Shown piece after piece: positions 32,032 to 53,667 of a stretch of 64,000 nt of DNA. The stretch's first letter is position 1, and every line of letters begins with the position of its first letter. The stretch is from Sclerotinia nivalis. Taxonomy: Eukaryota; Ascomycota; Leotiomycetes; Helotiales; Sclerotiniaceae. The notes under the pieces are model-generated. The model was not told the origin of the DNA. It made no database searches and saw nothing but the letters and a program-made list of their open reading frames with translations. The stretch is from positions 2,232,001-2,296,000 of the forward strand of contig JAPEIS010000009.1 of assembly GCA_029531795.1 (NCBI GenBank), in the 5' to 3' direction. A program made the translations under genes and the position numbers.

Positions 32032-32322
32032 TATCCATTTTACTGTAGTATAATAGGCTTAATTGCCCACACCATTGACCGTTTGCGCCCTGTATTCCGG
32101 TAACATTGTGACAGGCTACACCGCAGCTATTGCCTTGCAGGCGTGCCTCCCTTTGATGATCGGTGCACTGGTTGCGTTGGGGCTATGTGTTTTCGTGCTG
32201 AACTCAGCACGCCACTTCAAATTTACATTTATCTCGAATCACTCCTTCTCTGCAAAGAAAATACTATTTATCTACCGTTCATTGCTTTCAGGCGTATATT
32301 CCAACTGACATCGTACTTTGGC

Positions 32323-33684
32323 ATGGATCCTGTCGGTTTCACAGCAAGCGTAATCAGTATCGCAACTTTAGCCGTCCAACTCGGGGTTGCACTAAGGAAA
32401 GCGGCTGCATTCTGGGAGGCTATCCAAGATGCTCCTTCGGATATTCGTCGACTGTCTAGAGAGTTGATGCTTGTGGCTAACGTTTTCCATGCGATTCGAG
32501 TTGAATATGAAGCTGGTAGCGTACCTAAAAATTGTCAAAATATGATCAAGGCGGCTTTGGATCTAGCAAAGGACGATGTTGATCAGCTTTCAAAGTTTAC
32601 CTCAGAATTGACGCGAAAACTATCCCATACAAATGGCAATTTCGGTACACAATGGAGAAAAGTCCAAGTGGCTCTGAGAGCTAGCAAAATAGAAAAGTTC
32701 AAGGACAATCTGAAGAGCGTGGAAATAATCATGACCTTGCTGCAGGCAAGTAGAAATCAGTAATGGAAGGCCTTGCTAGTAGATTGGCATTTGATTGACT
32801 CATTGGTTACAGGTCTTCCATGATTCAAGTCAATAGTAAGCTCGATATCCTGGACACGAAGATCAGCTCGATAGCGGCCACCACCACAAGCTCATCCCTT
32901 CAGATTACACACCAATCCTCACTGCAACTCATGCAGAATCGCCCAGTTTCTCCCAGGCACAGGTCAAATTACACGAACGGCGTTTTTAAGTCTATCGATC
33001 AACACCGGACGAACTTCTTCTTTGGCACTTTCAGTTTCAGAACTATTTCTACCACTTACCGATATGATGATAACGATTCCCCGAATGATGCAGATAACTC
33101 GACAACTACTAAAGATTACCTAGTTGAGTTCCTCATAGGATTCACAACCTGCCGGAAAGGTTTCAGAGTAACGGCAACAAACACTTTTGATCATTACAGG
33201 CTTGATGTGATTCGACGACGACCAAACAATTCAGAGATTTTTAAAGTCTGTACGGAAGGCGACGCAGGAGCAGTGAAAAGGTTGCTTGATCGTGGCGAAG
33301 CATCTATTTATGATGTGGATGAATATGGGGAGTCTCTTCTACATGTAAGCGTTCAAAAACATCCGCGACTTTCGTAGAAATTACTTATTATTTTACAGAA
33401 AGCTGCGTCATGTGCCGACCCAAAGCTTTGCCAAATGCTTCTTGATCTTGGGGCTGACGTATATCTAGAGAACAATAATGGGAGGTCGGTATAGCATACC
33501 CAGAAAGTGAATTATACTTACATATCATAGCTCGCCTATGGTCCATACAATAGGATGGGAACGACCGGAATCATTCATCTTGATATGCGAAAGTGGTTAT
33601 GATCTTTGGCCCTCAGATGAATTATTAGCCTTCAAAGCCCGTCATATTTGCAATACCATTAGTGTGTGGCGATATATATACCAG
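32323..33684 (+). pseudogene. STAND/ankyrin-type protein gene, truncated at a Rep-element repeat
   Basis: Four exons (32323-32759, 32813-33344, 33399-33484, 33531-33684) keep one frame. The N-terminus MDPVGFTASVISIATLAVQLG is the helical N-terminal domain common on fungal NLR/STAND and ankyrin proteins (about 1-120). A variable linker follows. From about 300 there are ankyrin-like units: GDAGAVKRLLDRGEA, DEYGESLLHKAAS and CQMLLDLGADVYLENNNG. The frame then meets the GC-rich left repeat of the Rep element 11 bases after the last normal codon. CAG|GTTAAC at that point could also be a weak donor, so insertion in an intron cannot be excluded. No further ankyrin exons were found downstream. Such proteins act in heterokaryon incompatibility and innate-type recognition. 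Confidence 0.6.
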
Positions 33685-33695
33685 GTTAACTCAAA

Positions 33696-33800
33696 GGGGG
33701 GGGCCCCATCAAGCGGATGGGGGGGGATGTATCATCCCATCATCAAGCAGATGATTTTGATTGAACAGATAGTGAGATTGTATGAGTGGAGCAAGTGTGC
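33696..33800 (+). repeat. Left terminal repeat, copy 1 (L1)
   Basis: A run of eight G is followed by a perfect hairpin: CCCCATC 33704-33710, loop AAGCG, GATGGGG 33716-33722. Downstream, GAGTGGAGCAAGTGTG and the AGCACATTTACACCC region match the L2 copy at about 70 percent by eye. Confidence 0.7.
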
Positions 33801-34330
33801 GGATAGCACATTTACACCCACTATGATGGGTGGATCGATAGATTGTTCGGACCTTTTGGTATTCGTAGAGGGGTTCACAACGGAGTTGATGATTTTGATT
33901 GGAAGTCGATTGATGGGATAAGTTTTACATCTCGATATTCATAGGATATTGGAAAGCCTGTAGAACAAGTGTTTGTAAGTATTGATGGAGGGAAGCAATG
34001 GAACTGTGGTAAGACTTTGAATATGCAAATGAATATTTCTTCTCTTATACGTACTATTGGGTTTGATAATCGGATACAACCTTCACCTTTGGGATCTTTA
34101 TAGATTGCGATGTGTTATTACATTATTGAAATTTATATTTAATTGAATAAAATTGTTGAGTATCGATAAGGTGTTAATGTGATTCTTGTATTTGAAATTC
34201 CTTTTGACTTTTTTTTGGTTATTGATTGTCCTAAATCATTGAATGAGGCTGGTAAGCTTGTTGTTGTTGGTGGTGCAGTTATTGCGATGGATTACGAAGT
34301 GTATTATCAGTAATAGAGTTATTTTCCCTT

Positions 34331-34455
34331 CAGAGGTAAAGTTATAGAACGAGGGGGGGTCCCCAGAGTACGAGAGTGGAGGGCCCCCCAGAGCGGAGCG
34401 AAGGGAGGAAGGGTTCCCTTCGACGGATGGGGGGGAGTCCCTTAGTATTAGAGTA
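34331..34455 (+). repeat. Right repeat, copy 1 (R1)
   Basis: Nearly identical to R2. Shared blocks include GTCCCCAGAGTACGAGAG, GGGTTCCCTTCGACGGATGG and CCCTTAGTATTAGAGTAG. The first part corresponds to the last codons of the Rep gene in the other copy, so R1 retains a fragment of a former Rep 3' end. TAGTATTAG sits at 34443-34451. Confidence 0.8.
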
Positions 34456-34655
34456 GTTAGATTGAATGAAAAAAAAATTTAAATTCCTCGCAGAGTACCG
34501 GGTTACGCCCGGAAATTAAAGTCACGTGAGTGATTATGTATGCATAGGCGGTGGCCACATCTGTCGTTTTATAGGTTCAAAAAAAAAGGTAGGAGCCCCG
34601 CTCCTTATAACATTGCACCTTTTTTTTTGGAGATCCTGAGTTTACTCAATCTCGA
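34456..34655. other. Inter-copy spacer with hairpins, candidate replication origin
   Basis: Two hairpins are clear. One has CCGGG 34498-34502 and CCCGG 34508-34512 around TTACG. The larger has 12-base perfect arms AAAAAAAAAGGT (34579-34590) and ACCTTTTTTTTT (34617-34628). It encloses a second hairpin, AGGAGC/GCTCCT around CCC (34591-34605), and the single-stranded segment TATAACATTGC (34606-34616). CRESS-DNA origins are stem-loops that display a nonanucleotide. This is the best candidate, but the loop does not match the canonical TAATATTAC. Confidence 0.45.
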
Positions 34656-34790
34656 GGGGGGGCCCCATCAAGCAGATGGGGGTGGGTCTATGACCCCATC
34701 AACGGTAGGTTGATTTTGTGTGAGTGGAACGAGTGTGTGATTAACACATACGCACCACCTGTGGATCGTGCACGGAGTAAATTGGGTGGG
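34656..34790 (+). repeat. Left terminal repeat, copy 2 (L2)
   Basis: Seven G are followed by the hairpin CCCCATC 34663-34669, loop AAGCA, GATGGGG 34675-34681. It is the counterpart of L1 and lies about 250 bases before the Rep start codon, so it is in the Rep promoter/leader. Confidence 0.75.
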
Positions 34791-34929
34791 GACACCCAAA
34801 CTCACGAAGTGAGATTCGGTTGAGATTAGACGACAATCAGCCATCAGCTGACGGGTTCGCTTACTAGCGTTGCGCCAGCATAAGAAGAACATTTTTCTTC
34901 TCTCACTTTCAATCCTTAATATTCTCGAC

Positions 34930-36114
34930 ATGAGTTCGAGGATGGATGAAATTATTTTTTCGGATGCTATTAGCATCGCACCTAGTGATGTTTCATCATC
35001 ACGAAGTTCCGCACGTAGTTCTCGCAAGAGAACGTACGAGATACATTCTCGGTGGGTTTTCTTAACTTACGCGCAGAGTAACGTTCAATCAAAATCAGAT
35101 TTTGAGTTATTATTTATGCAAATGCTGTCACGCATTGGGTATGACGGTAGTTATTATGGATGTTTGGAACATCATCAGGATGACAATCCTGGAATACATT
35201 ATCATGTATTGGTTCATTTTGGTAAGCAGCCATCGTGGACGTTGTCCACGGCACGGAAGTATCTGTGCGTTGAAGACGACGGAGAATCACATTCTCTTAA
35301 TATCGTGTCACGAGGACAGAAAATTAATAATTTTATTGAGAATCATGTTTCGTATGTTGAGAAATATGGAGACACTTTTGGTGTACGACCATTGGTGGGA
35401 GAAGGTCGACGAGAGGAGAAGAAACGTAAGTGGGAAGCGGTGAGCGCGGAGAAGACAACAGTTTCTAAGTTGCAGAAGGTGAAGGAAGAGTTTCCTGATT
35501 CGTATTACAAATGTTTTAACAGCATACAGTCTGCTGTGAAGTATGAGCATCGTGGGGAAGATGCGTATGAGGCGTTTGAATTGCCTTCGTATATCGATAC
35601 GAGTAGGTTTGTTGTACCGGAAGTTATACTCCAATGGGAGGTGGAGAATTTAATGATGCCGGAGCCTGGGCGTCGTAAGAGTTTGTTAATTATTGGCGAA
35701 TCCCGGACAGGGAAGAGCACCTTGGCGCAGTTTATAGCGTCACGCTACGGAGTTTTTTCGGAGTTTGACACGGAGTGGGACTTGAATGGTTTTCGAGAGG
35801 GGCAGGTATGTGCCGTGTTTCATGATATTCAGAAGGGATTTCCTCATTGGAAGTCTGTGTTTGGTTGTCAAGCGTCGGTGACTGTGCACGAATGGTATGC
35901 AGCGACACGTCGCATGCGTTGGGATGTACCATCGATTTGGGTTTGTAACCGCGACGATGATCCTCGGGATTGGGGTGATGCCCAACGTAGATATATATCT
36001 GGGAATGCTGTTGTGTATGAAGTTGGTTTTGGAGAAACACTTGTTTCTTCCCTCGAGGCAGAGTTATGGAACAAGGGGGGGTCCCCAGAGTACGAGAGTG
36101 GAGGGGCCCCCTGA
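34930..36114 (+). CDS. rep: Rep protein: HUH endonuclease plus SF3 helicase, genomovirus/geminivirus class
   Basis: Intact intronless frame of 394 residues from the ATG at 34930. The N-terminal 40 residues are Ser/Arg-rich and may hold a nuclear localisation signal. HUH motifs follow: I FLTYAQ (44-49), II HYHVLVHF (90-97), III YVEKYGD with Tyr142 as nicking residue and Lys145 (142-148). Helicase motifs: Walker A GESRTGKST (256-264), Walker B VFHDIQ (296-301), motif C IWVCN (336-340). The helicase region resembles genomovirus Rep (GxxQ, W..P.IWxCN.D). Walker B has His at the first acidic position. Such proteins start rolling-circle replication by nicking an origin and joining the 5' end to Tyr. 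The last about 14 codons lie inside repeat R2. It is longer than the usual genomovirus Rep of about 330-350 residues. No capsid gene accompanies it. Confidence 0.9.
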   Translation: MSSRMDEIIFSDAISIAPSDVSSSRSSARSSRKRTYEIHSRWVFLTYAQSNVQSKSDFELLFMQMLSRIGYDGSYYGCLEHHQDDNPGIHYHVLVHFGKQPSWTLSTARKYLCVEDDGESHSLNIVSRGQKINNFIENHVSYVEKYGDTFGVRPLVGEGRREEKKRKWEAVSAEKTTVSKLQKVKEEFPDSYYKCFNSIQSAVKYEHRGEDAYEAFELPSYIDTSRFVVPEVILQWEVENLMMPEPGRRKSLLIIGESRTGKSTLAQFIASRYGVFSEFDTEWDLNGFREGQVCAVFHDIQKGFPHWKSVFGCQASVTVHEWYAATRRMRWDVPSIWVCNRDDDPRDWGDAQRRYISGNAVVYEVGFGETLVSSLEAELWNKGGSPEYESGGAP

Positions 36115-36173
36115 AGGGAGGGAGGGTTCCCTTCGACGGATGGGGGGGACGGAGTCCCTTAGTATTAGAGTAG
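36050..36173 (+). repeat. Right repeat, copy 2 (R2)
   Basis: Overlaps the 3' end of the Rep gene and continues about 60 bases past its stop. A G-run/C-run stem (AGGGGG...CCCC with GGGG CCCCCT) flanks AGAGTACGAGAG. TAGTATTAG lies at 36160-36168, where similarity with R1 ends. Confidence 0.8.
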
Positions 36174-38486: not shown

Positions 38487-39463
38487 ATGTACACAGCCCA
38501 AACATCAGCTCTCACTGTCCCTGAAATCCTCACTTCAATCCTTTCCCATCTCGATATAAGCACTCTCCTCTTCTCCCAACGCGTTTGCAAATCTTGGTGC
38601 GAAGTAATTCAAACCTCTCCTATACTTCAACAATGTTTATATTTTACTTCTTCTTCTTCGTCTTCTTCTTCCTCCAATAAAAAACCCCCACCGATTTTAA
38701 ACCCACTACTAGTAGAAAGATTCCCCGCATGGTTCACGACATTAAAAATGGGCATATACGACATGAATGCCTTCGAAGAGCTCGAATGGTGCGACGGAAT
38801 TCGAGATGAGAATATGAACATCAATCTGGATTTCTGGAACCAAAATCAGAATATGGAGATGAAGCGGAGCCCATCGGAAAAAGCATTTACGTATAGTAAA
38901 GCTAGTTGGAGGAATATGCTCGTGGTGCAACCTGCCGCGAGGGAAATTATAGTAGATGCGGAGACGAGTTCTATGGGTGGGGGTTCGGGGGGTGTGGCGA
39001 GGGTTGGGGTTGCAGGGGGGGTGAGGATGGGGATGCTGTTTGATTATGTGTGGATGGTTGTTGTGAGGCCGGTTAGTGGGTTTGGGTTTGATTGGAGGGG
39101 GTGAGTGGGGTGAGGGGGAATGCGGATGGAGATGTTGATGGAGGTGGAGATTGGGGTGGAGATTGGGGTGGAAGGGGGGAGATTTTTAAATATTTGGGGA
39201 GGGGATGGAGGGGGAGGGGGAGCGAGGGGTTGGGGAATTGGGATGGTAGGGTTCGATTGATGACGAGGTGTACGATGCAGTGTTGTCCGAGTGATGAGGA
39301 TGCTTTGATGCAAAGGGTGGTGAGTGATGGATATAGGAAGTGGGATGTTAAGTGGAAAAGGATTGAGCGGGAAGAGGGGCAAGAGGGGTATAGACCGTGG
39401 GGACAAACAGATCTTGAGGGGAGTGGGGAGTGGAAGGTTGAAGAGGAAGAGGAAGGGAAGTAA
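38487..39463 (+). CDS. F-box protein, model uncertain at the 3' end
   Basis: Exon 1 (38487-39100) starts MYTAQTSALTVPEILTSILSHLD and has a full F-box (about 10-55: LFSQRVCKSWCEVIQTSP), a Ser run from a TTC repeat at 38646-38670, then a variable C-terminal part. The frame ends at a strong donor (GTGAGT at 39101). A second frame with plausible continuation (VRLMTRCTMQCCPSDEDAL) runs to the stop at 39461-39463. One phase-compatible acceptor lies near 39174, but it is purine-rich, so the junction is uncertain. F-box proteins recruit substrates to SCF ubiquitin ligases through Skp1; the target is unknown. Confidence 0.6.
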
Positions 39464-40408
39464 TTGTGGAGGGTTTTTTGAGGTTAATGAATTAGGATAT
39501 TGGAAGAATTAGGGGATTTCATATTTAATAATAATGGAAAAAAAAACAAATTTAATTTATCATTGTTATCATATGCATTTGATCAGCTAATATATTGATA
39601 TAGTTAGGGATAATTTTAATTTTTAGATGATTATATAAAACGATTATATGATTTATATCTATGGGTGATTCAATACCTAGGTGTTTTATAGGGTAATTAT
39701 CCTATGAAATTTTGATGGGTAAGGTACACTACCTGTAGAGGTTAAATACACCTGATAGGGTACGGGTGCCCATGCATGGCACTGCCATGTGTTCTACATG
39801 TGACTTTTGCTCTTCGATTGGCATGCACAATGGATCAGCTTGAACGTGGTGATCACTTTAATCAACCCTTGAATACCTCACAACGGGCTCAGGTGAACTC
39901 CCGCATCTCCATTATCTTATCTGGGGCTACTTCACGCGATGAGTACACATGGCCATGCGGCATAGTTTGAATCGCAAGTTCTTCGAGAATACTATATTCA
40001 GCTAAGTATCCACCCCAAGAAGCGGAATAAGGTTGCATCTCTGTGCTGTTTTCAGCTGATGTTTGAGGAACAGCTTGTATATTGAAGCTATACTGAAAGA
40101 TTTCACAAGCCCTAACGTAGGAAAATTGCCTGGCGAGCTTTCCAGAAAGAGGTATCCGGCCCGTCCCAAAAGTTGAAATGAAAAGTTCCACGCCTATACC
40201 ATAACGGGTTCACCTCATTGTGTATCTGCGGATTAAGACATAATAGTCCCGGATAGCAAGAGCTTCCATCCTTTCTTCTTTCTTAACAATCTCGAGGCAA
40301 GTATATATATAGGGCAGATCGTACCATCCGGGATAAGGTGGCTTTGTATCAGAAAGTGTATTTCCGAAGGAAGTCGCAAGAATGGACAAGATGCCGTTGA
40401 TGGTTTTA
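39464..40408. other. Intergenic region with a possible out-of-frame continuation of the minus-strand gene
   Basis: 39.5-39.75 kb is AT-rich. On the minus strand, 40479-40210 has a protein-like frame (LQSWNFDKRLSKTINGIL, PPYPGWYDLPYIYTCLEIV) that overlaps the end of the neighbouring 2EXR-like gene in another frame. It may be its true C-terminus after an unseen intron or a frameshift. Confidence 0.4.
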
Positions 40409-41670
40409 CTAAGTCTTTTGTCGAAATTCCAACTTTGTAGTCTGAAGCATATCGAGCTCAAAAGCATCCAAATACACACGTGCTCTTTTCTTCGCCACTA
40501 AACGATAGTTATTCATAAGATCTCCTCGATACCGGTGGTTTGTGTTTATTGGAAAGCGAATCGTAGTAGTCATTTTTGATAATCCTGATATATCTCGAAA
40601 AGGGCACAAGGTAGATTCCAAAAGGCTGCTTAGATCCTCTGAAGAACCTTCAAGGGCTGACAACCATGTTGGCATGTGTATTGAGAGTTCAATCCTCAGC
40701 TGTTTAAGGGTGCCACTCTTGGCTAAATAGTCTCCCAATCCTGTTAAAAATTCATGGTTGTTTTGTCTGCTTGATGTTGATGTTGATACCACATTAACAC
40801 CCCGAACATAGATAAATACACGAAGTGATGTCACGAATTTTAACACATGCGGTACGCTTCCTGATAGGAGTGTTGTTTGGTCCAAGAAGTTCACCACATT
40901 CGAGATCCACAGGTGAAATCTCCCGGTTCCGTACCACAGTGGAATGACCTCATAGTAAATCTGCCAATTCAAACGTAATATTTCTGGGTAACAATAATCT
41001 CCATCTTTCCTTAAAAGACCCCATGGACTGAATGTCTCCCATGTAGCAAAATGTGTTCGATTTCTTAAACGACCAGGAGTGATGTGGGATGAAAAATTAG
41101 ACCGAATGTATTCATTTGGAATGAGTTCATTGTAGATCAAAATTCGCAACTCCGGAGGAAGTCGTAAAAATGGAGATTGATTGGTAACAGGTAGGGTATC
41201 ATTTGGATTCAATCTTTCCCTATTTGTGATCTACCAAAGTCCCGTCAGATTAGGTAGACCTTAACAAATGAGAAGTACGGCAATACCTCTTCGGGATCAA
41301 ACCAGTCTTTCCAAACACTCCCCGAAGTGAAAAACTGCATTGCTTTTGAGAGAACTAGCTTGAGGAAATCGGACCCTTGATCATTTTCCATACTGCGAAA
41401 ATGTGCTATGTGTGAGAACTTTGTAATGGTAGCCAAGTATTCAATTAATCCGCGTTCGCAGCCCCAGGGCGGAATATCAAGTGGACAATTTGTGTGCAAA
41501 CAGTCGCCTGTCAGTGGATAGTATTTTCAAAGCGCAGGTATTTTTACCGTTCTTCACATACGCGATGCTGGCGACCGAAAGATAATCGTAAAAGGACAAT
41601 CAATATTAGCAAAGATGGCAGTAGATAACTTTTGGGCGTTTGAGGTAAAGTGTGACCTATTGAATCAGGC
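40409..41670 (-). CDS. 2EXR/F-box-like fungal protein of unknown function, multi-exon
   Basis: At least three exons fit one phase. The first ends TCGC at the GTATGT donor (first intron base 41563). The second begins after an ACAG acceptor with DCLHTNCPLD and runs to DPEE at a GTATTG donor. The third begins ITNRERLNPND and holds FLRLPPELRILIYNELIP, the fungal 2EXR-type motif, and ends at 40409. The middle exon has CERGLIEYLATITKFSHIAHFRSM and SGSVWKDWFDPEE. The N-terminal start was not found; the segment near 41600-41660 reads as coding. These proteins are abundant in Leotiomycetes and their role is unknown. See also the out-of-frame extension downstream. Confidence 0.5.
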
Positions 41671-44440
41671 TGACACCAAAAGCAATTGCCAACAGGTTCG
41701 GAGCGATGCAGGCAACCCTTGGCAGGGTAGTACTCGCTCAGACGTATCATTCCTCGTGTGATGCAGTAACATTGATATACAACAGTACGAGTTCATGGTA
41801 ATGAATAGTCCATAGCATAAAAAATAATCACCTTGGCACAAAAAATAATGTGAAGGAGCATAAACCCGGAGAAGCAGACGAAAATATTCATCTCCGAGGT
41901 ATACCCCCACCCACCCATCATCAAAAATTTTCCACACTAAAAAAGGCAGTTTACACCATTTGCACCATTTGCACCAATTTCTCACTCACACTAACCTAGC
42001 ACAGACCACCCCACCCAAACCTATATAATCCCCTCTCCCCCAGACCCTCAGGGAAAAAAGTATCGACAATACTTCAAAGAATCATTTCTTTAGTAAACGT
42101 CCTTCTTCTGTGTTCTCTACAAGAGCCACAGACTCCAACTGGGAAGATGAGCCGATCCTCAATGTCCTAGAGTGAAACCGTTTTGCTTTCGTTTTATTCC
42201 TCTCTCTTTTGGGAGGAGTAACGTCGTGTTTCTGGAAACAGATGTGATGTATAGAAAGTGGTGATGATCTCGACCCTTTTTTGATTGACTTCGGTCGTTG
42301 GATTTGGGTGGGCGTTGATGGACGTCTGACCAGTTTTTGAAACACTTTTTTTTCATTGCATATTTGGCCTGGTGCTGGGTTGTGAAGAAGATTTCGTTTT
42401 TCATTTTGCGCTGTATTGGTGACAGAGTTTTCATATGACGCTATCCATAATTTCGGATGGATTCAACCGTGAAAACCCTGCCACTTTAATCACCTCGGTT
42501 TACCTCGCGACATCAATCAATCAATCCTGCTAGCCGCTAGGTATATTCAAGAACTCTGATTGCTATCCATTACAATCAACCATACTCCACACAACAACAA
42601 CAATAGCAACCTCAATCCCGTCGCAACAAATCACGTCCAATCCCACAAAATCTCGCAATCTCTAACCTCACGAGAAGAATACGCCCGCGATCAATTTTAT
42701 CCATCCGACAATTCAAAACAAGATGTTATTTTGCAGTTTCAATAATGGTGATATTGATATTGGTTTGATGTATTGATGTATCCTTCTGAATGAACAGAGA
42801 GTCTGAATGGATTTTGGATCGCTGGTACCAATGTGTGTGTTGGGGATTGATGATTGGGGATTGATTTTGGATTTTGGATTTTATTGTTCCATTGTACAGG
42901 TAGGTGTATGTTATCTAACTTTGACTTCTTACAAATATCCACAACATCATCGCATCTCGTACTGCTCGGGTATAACTTCACTAGAAATCGATCGTGTCCA
43001 TCGATTCCCCAACCTTGCAGCAACCTCCCATCTATACCTATCTAACAATCCCTACTGTTACCTTCTCCTTTTTACCAACATCCAAACTCATATATTTTCC
43101 ATCTTCTCCCTCCCTCTCTCCCAAAAAATATCATTAAGACGTCGACAGTGTACAAACTATTTAAGGATCTTTCGAGTGGTGTTGTGTCAGGCGCGAGGTG
43201 AAAGAAAGGGCTGTAGGGTTGTAGAGCTGCAGGACTACAACAGTACTTGGAAACGAGAAGGTATGGAGAGGAAAAGTGACGATGAATGAAGAACAGCAAA
43301 GGAAACAAGTTGTGTATAGTTATAGGCTGGAGTTAAGAAGGCCTCAAATAGATATAGGGATGTGAGGAATGAGGAATGAGGACAGAGTGGTGAATATAAT
43401 AAATTCGTGGGGTGGGTGATTGGGAGATAGAGGGGGGAAAATAATAGTTGGTGCAGGTGAAAAGAAAGCGAAAGTAATGGATATGAGTACGTATTGGATT
43501 TCGATTCTTGCTTTTGGTTTAATAAATGTTTATCGCCAATTGCGGTAGCGACGTCATTCAAATCGGTCGTCAGTTTTGGCTACTGGGTATATTTATTATG
43601 AATGGGCATTGGAAACATACAGGAGATACTGAGGTTTAATTAATTGAAAAGATGGCAATTACTAGCTAGTGCCAAGTACATTGCTCTGTTCCATGTTCCC
43701 TCATAACTGCGTGGTTTCAATGTTTGGCAACTAGTCTACTCTTTCAGATTTGGTTGCGAAGATGGCATTTGTTAAGATTTAGTAAGATGGGTGTCTGGCT
43801 CATTTATTTATTGGATATTGAGTAGTCATCTGATATTTTGTTGCAGTTACGATTATTGGTAAATATCTCCGTCGTTCGAATCTAACACGCGTGATAGTTT
43901 CAAGAGTAAGGAGCTTCACGTCACCGAGAATGATATCTCATGATTTCATTTAACTCTCATTTATGTGGCCTATGCTTGCATTTCATGTCCCAATTTCATT
44001 ACATCATCCCAGGTTGCCAATTCCAGACATACTGTTCCCCAGAGTCTATCTTATCATTCTTTGGGCCATTTCCCTACGACATATGTTGAACCTCTATAAT
44101 CACCTAATATCTGCACCTCTCAAGTTTCATACATGCTTCCCTCGTTTCTTTAGACATTCTCCAATGCCTTAGCTCTCTCCTCAAACCATGCGATCGTCGG
44201 TTCTGCCAAGTCGAGTTTCTCTTCTCTCATTTGTCTTTGGGGTTTGGAATTTGTAGCTGTGGACTCTGTAGGTATGTCATCCTTGACCTCAAAGACTTGA
44301 AAAACTTCTAGAGTCTTCACTGTTTGTAACTTTCGAAGCTCTCCTTCGAGAAGAGAGAAAAACTTCTTTGAAACAAACTCTTGAGCGAGCCCGTAAGACC
44401 CAGAGTGAGGGATGTCAAATCTGTTGCCAGAGGATCTTCC
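41671..44440. other. Long region without a supported gene
   Basis: Short frames on both strands at 42.1-42.4 kb and 42.8-43.6 kb overlap and lack domains. The minus frame around 42470-42082 is open for about 130 codons and basic, but has no ATG. Nothing else was recognised. Confidence 0.45.
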
Positions 44441-49287: not shown

Positions 49288-51699
49288 GTCTATTGTTGTA
49301 TTTTTGGATTTCTCTTATTTAAAGGTTCGTGTAATTTTTCGATGTGGTTGCAATTGTGGTTGTAAACGTGGTTTCGGAGTTTGTTGTAGAAGAGGTTAAG
49401 AATTAGAAGCTGAGGATCTATGGAGGAATATTGAATATATGATAACCAGGACCGCGTTGACGATACCAAATACTCGAAACAACACAGCTCACTCGTATCC
49501 AAGAAGATAATTTTTAAAAGTGGACTTGTGCAGATGTTATGTCAAGAAATGTACTGTTTCTCAGGCGACCACTCCTGAAATCATCCGAATGGCTGGTCAT
49601 GACGCCTTTTAGAAAGGGAAAGAGCTTCCTACCTCGCCGCAAAAAACTACGATTGGGGATGGACTCTCTGGTTTAGATCAAACTTACGTGACGGTTTGTG
49701 CACCTGCCAGCTACAGAGGGTTTCCCTCTTTCTTATGGAAAGAGGGGCTTACCATTCAAGTTTCTGTCTCAGAATGAGGGACACTTTAATTTATGTTATA
49801 GGTTTTGTCCCCTCTTTTAATCCTATCGTAGAACTATCAGACGCAAATGCTTGATAGTACTTTTCCCTTCTAACCTCTCCGAACTCCGACGCAAGCAGCA
49901 CCCCAAACAGTTATTAGGGTTGAAGTATCCTCAAATACTTTAAGCCAACGATAATAGGATTGGCTCTCCTCATTAGTAGTAACGTGGGGAGATGGAGAGC
50001 CTGCTCTTCTCAAAAATTTTACGGCCTTTGTTTAAGCTCTGATAATTTGCTACAGCAAGATGTTATTAATTATCGATTAGATCTTCTGGTCATATTACCA
50101 GCACAGCTATTGGTTAACAGCCACACCACTTTAACAGTGTGTCGTGTCGATCTTGCTTGACAAATACAATATCTTAGAAATCATATCAGTGTTGCAAGAA
50201 ATGAACGTATCAGATGATGAAAAGAAATCTCATTTATATGAGTTACACGATTGATATGCGTCGATATCTAGAGGCATTAGCTAGTAAGTCATTGTCCTCA
50301 ACACGCATATTACCCCTATATTCCCGATATCAGGTTGGGCGATTATGTCATAACGAAGATGTCATCCAGTAACAGACTTGCTATTGAAAAACATTGTATC
50401 TATATTGACACTAAATTCCGGCTCATGCCAAAGAAATAGCAATTATACGCAATGATGCTGTGGCAAGCAGTATATTATCGCTTATAAACATATATTCAGT
50501 CCTGAAAAAAGCGTAAGTATTTCATATCCCCAACATCACCTTTTCCATGCTTGCAAATATTAAGGAAGAGGTAAATTCCGAGAAAGACAAGAAAAAGAAG
50601 AGGGAAGAGGATTAGATTCTCGAAAAATACCAAGCAAGATGAAAATAATTTCTCTTATTCTCATCACTTACAAATCTAGCATCTAATAATCTCATAATAA
50701 GCGCTGCAATCTCTAGTCCGTTCTTCAGGCTATCATATATTCATATTTATATACTATCAACAAATCAATTTTCTATTATCTAGTCTGGGCAGGTTGAACT
50801 GAACTTCATTTAAACTAGAGAACCACCGTCTCATATCTCCGCATCAAGTATTCTATACTATCTTAATATCAATTAAATAATCGATAATAAATAATTCTAC
50901 TATACATACTATCCTCAAAACATTGACATTGATATTGACATTAACAAAGATAATTCCAGACTCTGATTCAATAGCCCCTGAATTTATAATATCTTTTAAT
51001 GGTATCTTAATTCTACGTAGATAGAATAAATATAAAGGTATGTTTAGATTATTATAAAGTGTTTTGTATCTTATATTCTTTTAAGTGATTTATATATCTA
51101 GTAGTTATATACGGTTTTTCATACTCAATTTCATACTTAATTTCATACTTAATTTCATATTCATATTCATATTCACATCCTCATTCACATCCTCATTCAC
51201 ATCCTCATCCTCATCCCTATTCATAATTGATCATTCACAACCAAGAACCTTCTCAATCAAAGTAATTTTTCATTTTCGAACTATTCTATCATTCCCACTA
51301 TCTTTTCTCTCACATCGTTTTGACTAAATAGCTAAATAGCTGATTATTGTCAGCTTCTTGACTTTCTATCCATTTATCCATGAATTTCATTTCATCCATT
51401 TCATCCATTCATAATATCCATCCTCCCAATATTCAATTTCACACTTGCCAATCAATCTATCCACTCAATAAGTAACCCCAACCATCTACTCCGCTCCTCA
51501 CATCCACCAAATCTATGAATCTCCAGCAATATCACCCATCACCCATCACCCATCTTTCATCACACACCATCCATCCCAGCATACTATCCAGCTCGCATAT
51601 ATAGCCCAGCCCTTTTGAACCCACCCATTTTCATCCACATCCACATTCATGCACCCTCACTCACTCACTCAAACCTCCCCCCAAACCCCAAACCACACC
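49288..51699. other. Long AT-rich intergenic region
   Basis: About 2.4 kb without a supported gene. CATATTCATATTCACATCCTC-type low complexity lies at 51.13-51.23 kb and CCATC-rich sequence at 51.4-51.7 kb, near the 3' end of the next gene. Confidence 0.55.
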
Positions 51700-53667
51700 T
51701 CAAACCCCCTTCCCACCCACAAATTCATCCTCCCACTCAAATTTCGGCAAAATAAGTGATTGACGATAACTCCGTCTTCTTTCTGCATCTGTTTATTTTC
51801 ATCCATCATTAGTATATATCCACTTGTACGATTATAATAAAAATTAAAATTGGGGGATGGGAAGAAGTAAGGCAATGGAAAAAGGGGAGTTGAGTATACA
51901 TACCCGAATCAATTTTCTCCCTCGAGCTCGCGATATCTTTCCCCATTCCCATTCCCATTTTCATACCATCTCCCGCATATCCACCTACACCTCTAAGATA
52001 CTCGGAGGGTACCGTATTAGTACCGTATTTTTCCGCATTTATTCCCAATCCTTCCATTCCCTCAACACATCCAGAACCACCCCCACTCGAAGTCCTCATA
52101 AACCCCATCCCCTGCATCCCCCTAAAACTAACACTCGCCCTCCTCAAAAAGCTTCCCGTTCGCGATCCCAATCCCATTCCCATCCCCCCCGATCCAGAAG
52201 CCGAAGTATTACTATTCCCACTATACCTATCTCTCGCAGTACCTCTTCCCATTCCATTTATATCACTTCCACCCCCCACATCTCCCATACCTCCTCCTCC
52301 TCCTCCTCCTCCCATGCCCTCCACACTATCATCCCCCTCAACCCCATTCCCACCAAACCCCATGCCCACAAAATTAAACCCATGAATAGGCGCCGTATAC
52401 GAGCGACGAAAAGCGCGAGATTTGGAGTTGCAATTGATGGAAGGGCTAGAGGTGCAGGTGTAGAGGGGACTTGTTGTGGGGGGTGTACCGTGCGAGATTG
52501 TGGTGGGTTGGATAGGGTGGGAATGCAAGGGGTTTTCGTGGTGACTGTGAGGGAGGAGGTTAGTGTGTGATCTTAGGGGAGGGGGTTTGATAGGGATGAG
52601 CTGGGGGAACGTATGGAGGATATGGAAAGATAGACAGTTTTAAATATAAATAACGAGAAAGCTTGACAACGAAAAGAGAAAGAAAAAAAAAAGAAAGAAA
52701 GAAAAAAAACTTACAGATCCCTCCCACCCCTCTCCATCCTCTCCCTCTCCAACCTCACACTTCTCTCCTCCTTCCTCTCGCCAACAACTTCACTCTTCAA
52801 ACTCTTCACACTCTCCACGCTCTTCAATCCCTCTCCTCTTTCCCCCTGTCTCCGTCCCCCTCCTCCCCTCGCACACTCCAACCTCTCATTAATATTTCCC
52901 CCATACTCAGTCTTCCAATCAAGATATTCCCGTCTATTAGTAACCAGTGGTTTGCGGGGGATAGTAAAGGCGCGATTTCTAGTCCCGATATGTCCTGTTT
53001 CGGATGTTGTGTTTATGTTTATGTTTGTGCTCGAGGCCACACTTGATGGAGAAACCTGGGTGGAGATAGGAGTCGCGTCAACGCCGCCGTGCTTCCTTCC
53101 TCCAGTTTCTAATCCACCTGCGATAGTATTTTCCATACCACTTCCTCCACCTCCACCTCCATCCTTCTCATCTACACTTCCGTCTCCACCCCCAACTTCC
53201 CCAACTTCCCCATTAAACCCACCCAATCCATCCGTAGGACTAACCTCCGCATCCAATACATCCAATTCATCCACAGCCTTCAAACACGGTGTCGGAGGAA
53301 GATTCTCATTCGGATTTGTAGCTGTTGAATTCGCTGTATCGATTGGATTACAATTCTTGCTTTTTTCGCTCATCTTGCTGATTTCCAATGTAATTTCCGT
53401 TGTAATTTCCGTAAGAGATCCCGGTGTCTTTTTGATTTTGGATTCCGTCGCAACTTGAGAATCGGAGAAGATTTGGGTCTCTCGACTAGTAGCAGCTCTT
53501 TCCGAAGTTGGACTCTCAGTCTGGGGTTGATCTTCTCGCTGAAGTAAATTTCGATTCCGATTCCGATTTCCCTTCAGACTATTAGAATGCATATTCACTG
53601 CATTTCCCAAAACGTCATTTGCAACCCCAGCGGCGGATTTGAAGAAGGAGGTTAGATGGTGAGGCAT
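51700..53667 (-). CDS. Low-complexity fungal protein of unknown function
   Basis: Three exons (53667-52715, 52544-51904, 51788-51700) keep phase and give 560 residues. The first intron follows a GTAAGT donor with a long pyrimidine tract on the coding strand. The N-terminus is MPHHLTSFFKSAAGVANDVLGN. The middle is rich in Gly, Ser, Thr and Asn, with a poly-Gly run from a TCC repeat near 52295. Conserved-looking pieces are FTIPRKPL with REYLDWKTEYGG, SRAFRRSYTAPIHGFNF and the end AERRRSYRQSLILPKFEWEDEF. The short last exon was found because it supplies this ending. The role is unknown. Confidence 0.75.

What the first reader, a model, noticed from the sequence alone, without database searches (positions are those of the whole stretch)
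34930..36114. Intact genomovirus/geminivirus-type Rep gene inside a fungal chromosome
The frame has all HUH endonuclease motifs and SF3 helicase motifs in order, no stop codons and no introns over 394 codons. Genomoviruses such as SsHADV-1 infect Sclerotinia, so a fungal host is in line with known biology, but an uninterrupted endogenous Rep suggests recent capture, domestication or an element that still moves.
Basis: partly seen in the sequence, partly recalled or inferred. Interest (0 to 1): 0.92.

Follow-up and report, generated by a model that had tools for sequence, protein, structure and literature searches.

The report
Endogenous two-part ssDNA virus-like insert
A chromosome of the plant-pathogenic fungus Sclerotinia nivalis carries an intact viral-type DNA replication gene beside a decayed second gene that shares its flanking sequences, as if two segments of a small single-stranded DNA virus had been caught together.

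Summary
Confirmed: window 34930-36114(+) is an uninterrupted 394-codon frame with HUH motifs I-III and SF3 Walker A, Walker B and motif C. One copy was found in the 50.3-Mb host assembly; a neighbouring gene names the host as Sclerotinia nivalis. Pfam and fold comparison place it in the geminivirus/genomovirus branch of CRESS Reps. Its nearest relatives are ascomycete proteins; a Botryotinia convoluta protein is its sister (70%). Membership in Genomoviridae itself is not shown.

New here: the Rep is part of a ~2.48-kb insert (33690-36173). A ~125-bp block recurs 1722 bp apart around the Rep unit. Upstream lies a second unit with diverged copies of both noncoding blocks but a non-Rep interior that looks like a decayed gene: codon periodicity in one frame, four premature stops. 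Different genes between shared blocks is the plan reported for the multisegmented Botrytis genomovirus BcssDV1 (PMC10731770, passages). Best reading: an endogenized multipartite-type CRESS replicon whose Rep stayed open while its partner decayed. Selection on Rep, or later arrival of the Rep unit, could explain that. Endogenous fungal Reps are known (Liu 2011); the multipartite reading is inference.

The parts
33690..36173 (+). Whole insert (2484 bp) as defined by the shared blocks; the true left edge may lie somewhat further out
   Evidence: Shared blocks; GC skew +0.27 against +0.02 and +0.10 in the flanks, though 18 of 567 other windows are as extreme
33690..33910 (+). U: diverged copy of the noncoding block that precedes Rep
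   Evidence: 141/173 aligned bases equal to 34651-34837 with many gaps; part after the hairpin reached by 0 of 500 shuffles
33911..34316 (+). X: decayed second gene, same direction as Rep; its frame may begin in U (counted from 33807)
   Evidence: Codon periodicity in one + frame, 0 of 2000 base shuffles; four premature stops in 168 codons and a closing double stop 34311/34314; unlike Rep
34324..34456 (+). L: left copy of the GC-rich block
   Evidence: 115 of 122 aligned bases equal to 36048-36173, four gaps; hairpin
34457..34650 (+). Spacer between the two units
   Evidence: No codon periodicity (|z| at most 1.2); no second copy in the blastn self-comparison
34651..34837 (+). E: noncoding block before Rep, with a 7-bp-stem hairpin at 34663
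34930..36114 (+). Intact Rep, 394 aa (possible start also at 34942)
36048..36173 (+). R: right copy of the GC-rich block, overlapping the Rep 3' end
36159..36167 (-). TAATACTAA, candidate origin nonanucleotide; same in L at 34442-34450
   Evidence: Only one of 11 consensus matches in the insert that recurs in both blocks; 6 bp inside the right edge; no stem-loop round it; consensus recalled

Best explanation
A ~2.5-kb piece of a small circular Rep-encoding ssDNA (CRESS) replicon of fungi was captured in a Sclerotinia nivalis chromosome. It consists of two units joined head to tail that share two noncoding blocks but carry different genes: unit A the intact Rep, unit B a second, now decayed gene. 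This is the plan of a multisegmented genomovirus such as BcssDV1. Mechanism (inferred): Rep's HUH-domain tyrosine (Y142) nicks the origin in the GC-rich block and starts rolling-circle replication; recombination or template switching between the shared blocks of two co-replicating circles gives a molecule longer than one unit; host end joining integrates it, with one edge near the origin. After integration unit B decayed as neutral DNA while Rep stayed open, either because it is still of use or because unit A arrived later through the shared blocks. Shown: gene, motifs, fold class, repeats, second unit, unequal decay. Inferred: segment nature, origin, order of events, selection.
For: Intact Rep of the gemini/genomovirus type. 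Two shared blocks round two different interiors: X is unlike Rep (156 of 200 shuffles score as well) yet coding-like, with the periodicity score reached by 2 of 472 windows of the 64 kb and 0 of 2000 base shuffles, and its frame closes 7 bp before L. Repeat period 1722 bp against 1690 nt for BcssDV1 DNA-A, whose segments share a ~260-nt and a ~38-nt common region (PMC10731770, passages). Ten of the 14 relatives of 340 aa or more have a longest contig of at most 3352 bp, nine of them 1325-1845 bp. Unequal decay: four premature stops in 168 codons of X, none in 394 of Rep (P about 8e-5 if equal).
Against: X has no recognised relative: PDB search of one piece gave nothing at E<=10 and of the other only scattered low-scoring sialidase matches, best E 0.015; Pfam best E 0.077 and 0.18, below cut-offs; IMG/VR none. 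With host-trained codon frequencies 6.8% of windows reach the X signal, and the mirror frame on the minus strand also scores (z 4.8 against 5.1). No stem-loop round the candidate origin. Unit B spans 959 bp (33697 to 34656), shorter than a 1.7-kb segment, so a loss must be assumed. The small contigs of relatives could be transcripts; their DNA could not be read. No genomovirus sequence was available for a tree.
Confidence: 0.55

Rival explanations
1. A capsid-less Rep-only plasmid (a circle of about 1.7 kb) integrated as a longer-than-unit molecule; unit B is a defective or satellite circle, and there was never a multipartite virus.
For: Repeat period 1722 bp and the 1.3-1.85-kb contigs of relatives fit Rep-only circles; no capsid gene recognised.
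Against: X looks like a decayed gene of its own between the same two blocks, which a Rep-only plasmid does not predict.
Confidence: 0.2
2. A rolling-circle (Helitron-like) transposon: Rep copy 34651-36173 is autonomous, 33690-34456 a non-autonomous partner with the same ends.
For: Both pieces start with the U/E block and end with the L/R block; a hairpin stands near the right end; a geminivirus-like transposon is reported in Tuber (PMC3198968, passages).
Against: No copies elsewhere in the genome were found (lower bounds). The Rep has the short CRESS plan, not the large Helitron protein (recalled).
Confidence: 0.1
3. Domesticated gene: Rep is now a host gene kept by selection. This can be true together with the best explanation.
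For: Intact beside a decayed partner (P about 8e-5); a B. convoluta chromosomal relative is also long and open (374 aa).
Against: L/R substitutions alone would leave the frame stop-free in 15-23% of neutral runs; unit A may be younger than unit B; no dN/dS or expression data. B. convoluta identity is 70%, and no shared site was shown (one search found no B. convoluta neighbour).
Confidence: 0.3
4. Assembly artefact: a free viral contig joined in error.
For: None positive; raw reads were not available.
Against: Internal position on a 2.65-Mb contig; decayed unit B and drifted repeats; a relative on a 50.5-kb contig of B. convoluta.
Confidence: 0.02

Closest known systems
[quoted passage not shown] abstract and passages)
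   Same: One gene per ~1.7-kb unit (DNA-A, Rep only, 1690 nt); two common regions shared by units with different genes; host in Sclerotiniaceae
   Different: Free virus, no integration mentioned in the text searched; Rep 321 aa or 380 aa after removal of a putative intron; sequence kinship to the window was not tested; nonanucleotide reported in a stem-loop
Endogenous geminivirus-like Reps of fungi (Liu et al. 2011, PMC3198968; abstract, outline and passages)
   Same: Same kind of gene in ascomycete chromosomes; an Aspergillus nidulans Rep is in their table, and an A. nidulans protein is a relative here (P0015)
   Different: The passages seen do not describe a repeat-flanked intact copy with a second unit; their Tuber element is a transposon with 37-bp inverted repeats
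Botryotinia convoluta BCON_0274g00050 (P0002)
   Same: Sister in the tree (100/99), 70% identity over 93%, on a 50.5-kb contig
   Different: Its surroundings could not be read; same or different site unknown
Genomoviridae Rep A0A858NF32 (BFVD)
   Same: Best viral fold match, E 2.6e-21
   Different: 24% identity, 310 aa; whole-model TM-scores low (0.36/0.46)

Membership tests
CRESS-DNA Rep (HUH endonuclease + SF3 helicase) | HUH motifs I-III then Walker A, Walker B, motif C in one protein | tested here: met
   All present in order; fold matches to CRESS Reps
Geminivirus/genomovirus branch of CRESS Reps | Gemini_AL1 and Gemini_AL1_M domains | tested here: inconclusive
   In the window protein AL1_M is just below its cut-off and AL1 is not listed; across the family AL1_M 9 of 11, AL1 6 of 11 at E<=0.01
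Geminivirus/genomovirus branch of CRESS Reps | GRS motif between motifs II and III (recalled) | tested here: inconclusive
   A conserved stretch stands at aa 113-127, but no reference motif was compared
Genomoviridae | Rep groups with genomovirus Reps in a tree | not tested
   No genomovirus sequences were obtained; best BFVD fold match is a Genomoviridae Rep at 24% identity
Genomoviridae | Capsid protein gene | tested here: inconclusive
   No capsid recognised; X is a decayed gene without recognised kin
Genomoviridae | Nonanucleotide of the TAWWDHWAN type (recalled) | tested here: met
   TAATACTAA in both blocks, on the strand opposite to Rep; 11 matches in the insert, so weak alone
Genomoviridae | Nonanucleotide in the loop of a stem-loop | tested here: not met
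   No perfect stem of 7 bp or more spans it; folded segments leave it unpaired, outside any hairpin
Multipartite genomovirus plan | Two or more units with different genes sharing common regions | tested here: met
   U/E and L/R blocks round X and Rep; X decayed and unidentified
Multipartite genomovirus plan | Units of about 1.7 kb | tested here: inconclusive
   Rep unit period 1722 bp; unit B only 959 bp (33697 to 34656)
Helitron / rolling-circle transposon | Several dispersed copies with fixed ends | tested here: not met
   Only this locus found (the tool calls its counts lower bounds)

The most novel reading that the evidence does not exclude
The locus is a chromosomal fossil of a multipartite ssDNA mycovirus from a Rep lineage outside the described genomovirus genera. 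Two segments were captured as one recombinant molecule, and Rep alone has since been kept under selection as a fungal gene while the partner segment rotted beside it.
Probability: 0.25. Interest if true: 0.75.

Novelty: new variant of a known kind. Interest (0 to 1): 0.5.

Why it matters
The endogenous fungal Reps in the passages I saw are described as single Rep genes or a transposon. An insert that keeps two units with shared blocks would be a record of how multipartite ssDNA mycoviruses recombine and enter chromosomes. Because one unit decayed and the other did not, it carries its own neutral control for asking whether a fungus keeps a viral Rep. It also points to a Rep family in Sclerotiniaceae, Aspergillus, Penicillium and Paecilomyces that two pattern scans of IMG/VR did not find.

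Tried and rejected
Tandem copy of the same Rep unit as the source of the left block: rejected, since the stretch 33860-34332 shows no similarity to the Rep region and the family profile finds no second Rep piece above noise in the window. Capsid identity of X, suggested by the look of its last residues: not supported by searches of the separate pieces. X as the rest of the upstream PigL_N/ankyrin-like host gene: unlikely, because U lies between them; those host-gene matches are themselves weak (PigL_N 9e-5 under its cut-off, Ank_4 0.05). Relatives among phage records: one weak hit (E 0.8), none with P0003. Plasmid records: six phytoplasma plasmids with P0003, 20-25% identity. IMG/VR: no relative; hairpin pattern 0 hits. 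The Gemini_AL1 family search of the own genome did not ring even on this Rep, nor in the 14 control genomes, so it says nothing on absence. A neutral-decay test from L/R substitutions alone is weak (15-23% survive). Synteny with B. convoluta: the one search spent on a neighbour gave no B. convoluta protein. Nearness of TACTCT in the block to the BcssDV1 nonanucleotide was noted and set aside as too short.

Full report
Observation. The frame reported at 34930-36114(+) exists, is 394 codons long without a stop, and carries the HUH and SF3 motifs in order. The protein matches PF23343 at its cut-off and, just under the cut-off, the geminivirus Rep central domain. Of an 11-member family alignment, 9 members match Gemini_AL1_M and 6 match Gemini_AL1 at E<=0.01. 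An AlphaFold2 model (mean pLDDT 76, pTM 0.44) has a Genomoviridae Rep as best viral fold match (E 2.6e-21, 24% identity). Among solved structures the best is the Vientovirus Rep (E 3.3e-11), followed by AAV Rep68 chains; the wheat dwarf virus Rep domain is at rank 42 (target TM 0.63). Whole-model TM-scores are low, so the placing of the two domains is uncertain. The second ATG (34942) lines up with the B. convoluta start.

Host. The neighbour ORF 40412-41230(-) is 100% identical to OCU04_008583 of Sclerotinia nivalis; that protein and the window's Rep are listed with the same longest contig, 2,654,634 bases; lineage. Upstream of the insert are threonine synthase and a weakly matched PigL_N/ankyrin-like gene. 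The held assembly is 50.3 Mb in 31 contigs. The Rep, the repeat block and the upstream unit were each found at this locus only (the tool calls such counts lower bounds).

Anatomy. A GC-rich block of about 125 bp (L 34324-34456, R 36048-36173) recurs in direct orientation with 1722-bp spacing; 115 of 122 aligned bases agree, with four gaps. The agreement stops abruptly after CCCTTAGTATTAGAGTAG. As single-stranded DNA both copies fold better than shuffles (z -3.3 for L on both strands, -2.1 and -2.2 for R). R overlaps the end of the Rep gene. A second block, the noncoding region before Rep (E, 34651-34837), has a diverged copy upstream (U, 33690-33910; 141/173 with many gaps); for the part after the hairpin 0 of 500 shuffles reach the score.

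The second unit. Between U and L lies X. It is unlike the Rep region: 156 of 200 shuffles score as well, and the family profile finds nothing there above noise. X is coding-like: with codon-position frequencies from Rep, one frame of the + strand scores 3.6; 0 of 2000 base shuffles reach that, and 2 of 472 windows over the whole 64 kb do. With host-trained frequencies the signal is weaker and 6.8% of windows reach it. In an earlier version of the test the same frame had z 5.1, the other two + frames were negative, the spacer and flanks stayed within 1.2, but the mirror frame of the minus strand had z 4.8, as it also does for Rep (6.2). The same + frame leads in each of the eleven sliding windows that start from 33640 to 34240, though only weakly inside U. 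That frame holds four premature stops in 168 codons and closes with a double stop at 34311/34314, 7 bp before L. So unit B has the order U - decayed gene - L and unit A the order E - Rep - R, with one spacer (34457-34650) between them. The insert's GC skew is +0.27 against +0.02 and +0.10 in the flanks; 18 of 567 other windows are as extreme, so this is supporting only. X itself has no recognised relative.

Relatives. The single-sequence search gave 15 proteins including the window's own, the profile search 31. Named relatives are from Botryotinia convoluta (70%), Paecilomyces variotii, Aspergillus tubingensis, A. nidulans and five Penicillium species. Of the 14 proteins of 340 aa or more, the window's own included, 10 have a longest contig of 3352 bp or less (nine between 1325 and 1845 bp; one of the ten, P0014, has a broken end). 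Of the 17 shorter ones 2 do; the others lie on longer contigs and most are pieces with the nuclease domain only. This looks like full genes on small molecules and broken ones in chromosomes, but the DNA of the small contigs could not be read and transcripts would look alike. In a tree of 13 of these proteins the window and B. convoluta are sisters (100/99); 3 of 10 inner branches are well supported and 4 are open.

How it likely works. From the family: Rep nicks the origin through Y142 and unwinds DNA with its SF3 domain (established for CRESS Reps, recalled; not tested here). The origin is likely in the L/R block: TAATACTAA, on the strand opposite to Rep, is the only one of 11 consensus matches in the insert that recurs in both copies, 6 bp inside the right edge. 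No stem-loop surrounds it, and the consensus is recalled. Two co-replicating circles that share both blocks can recombine into a head-to-tail molecule and be captured by end joining; only a 4-base word is shared by the two flank edges, so no target duplication is evident. BcssDV1 in Botrytis shows the same plan in free form: four circles of about 1.7 kb, each with one gene, sharing a ~260-nt and a ~38-nt common region (PMC10731770, abstract and passages).

Why Rep is intact. If X and Rep entered together and both drifted, about nine stops would be expected in Rep; none is seen (P about 8e-5). Either Rep is under selection or unit A is younger. The L/R substitutions alone would leave the frame stop-free in 15-23% of neutral runs. 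Indels point more strongly to selection (P 0.026 even at one fifth of the L/R indel rate, 0.16 at one tenth), but they lie partly in G-runs that slip easily. I do not claim domestication.

Novelty. Endogenous geminivirus-like Reps in fungi are published, Aspergillus nidulans included (PMC3198968, abstract, outline and passages). PMC9603141 (passages) cites further endogenous elements. Nine searches of the held library (only the listed top rows were read) showed no title or abstract start on a two-unit multipartite-type insert or on this S. nivalis locus; most subscription papers are not held. I rate it a new variant of a known kind.

Noticed in passing
window 42062-42334 (+): Fungal U3 snoRNA gene (Rfam RF01846, 166.7 bits), the only gathering-level Rfam match in the window.
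   Followed up: no
P0017, P0019-P0030 (Penicillium and unnamed contigs): Many relatives are short proteins with the nuclease domain only, several ending near the same residue just after the linker; shared decay, a gene-model effect or a kept nuclease-only form could explain this.
   Followed up: no
P0005 and P0013: By eye the Aspergillus tubingensis protein P0013 has the same start as the 394-aa P0005 over about 295 residues; its annotated end looks like a wrong splice, so that copy may be intact too.
   Followed up: no
window 39001-40000 and 51001-52000: Very strong GC skew (+0.54 and -0.55); open frames there are low-complexity.
   Followed up: no
window 32104-33690: PigL_N/ankyrin-like host gene pieces end where the insert begins; the gene may be interrupted by it.
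   Followed up: partly
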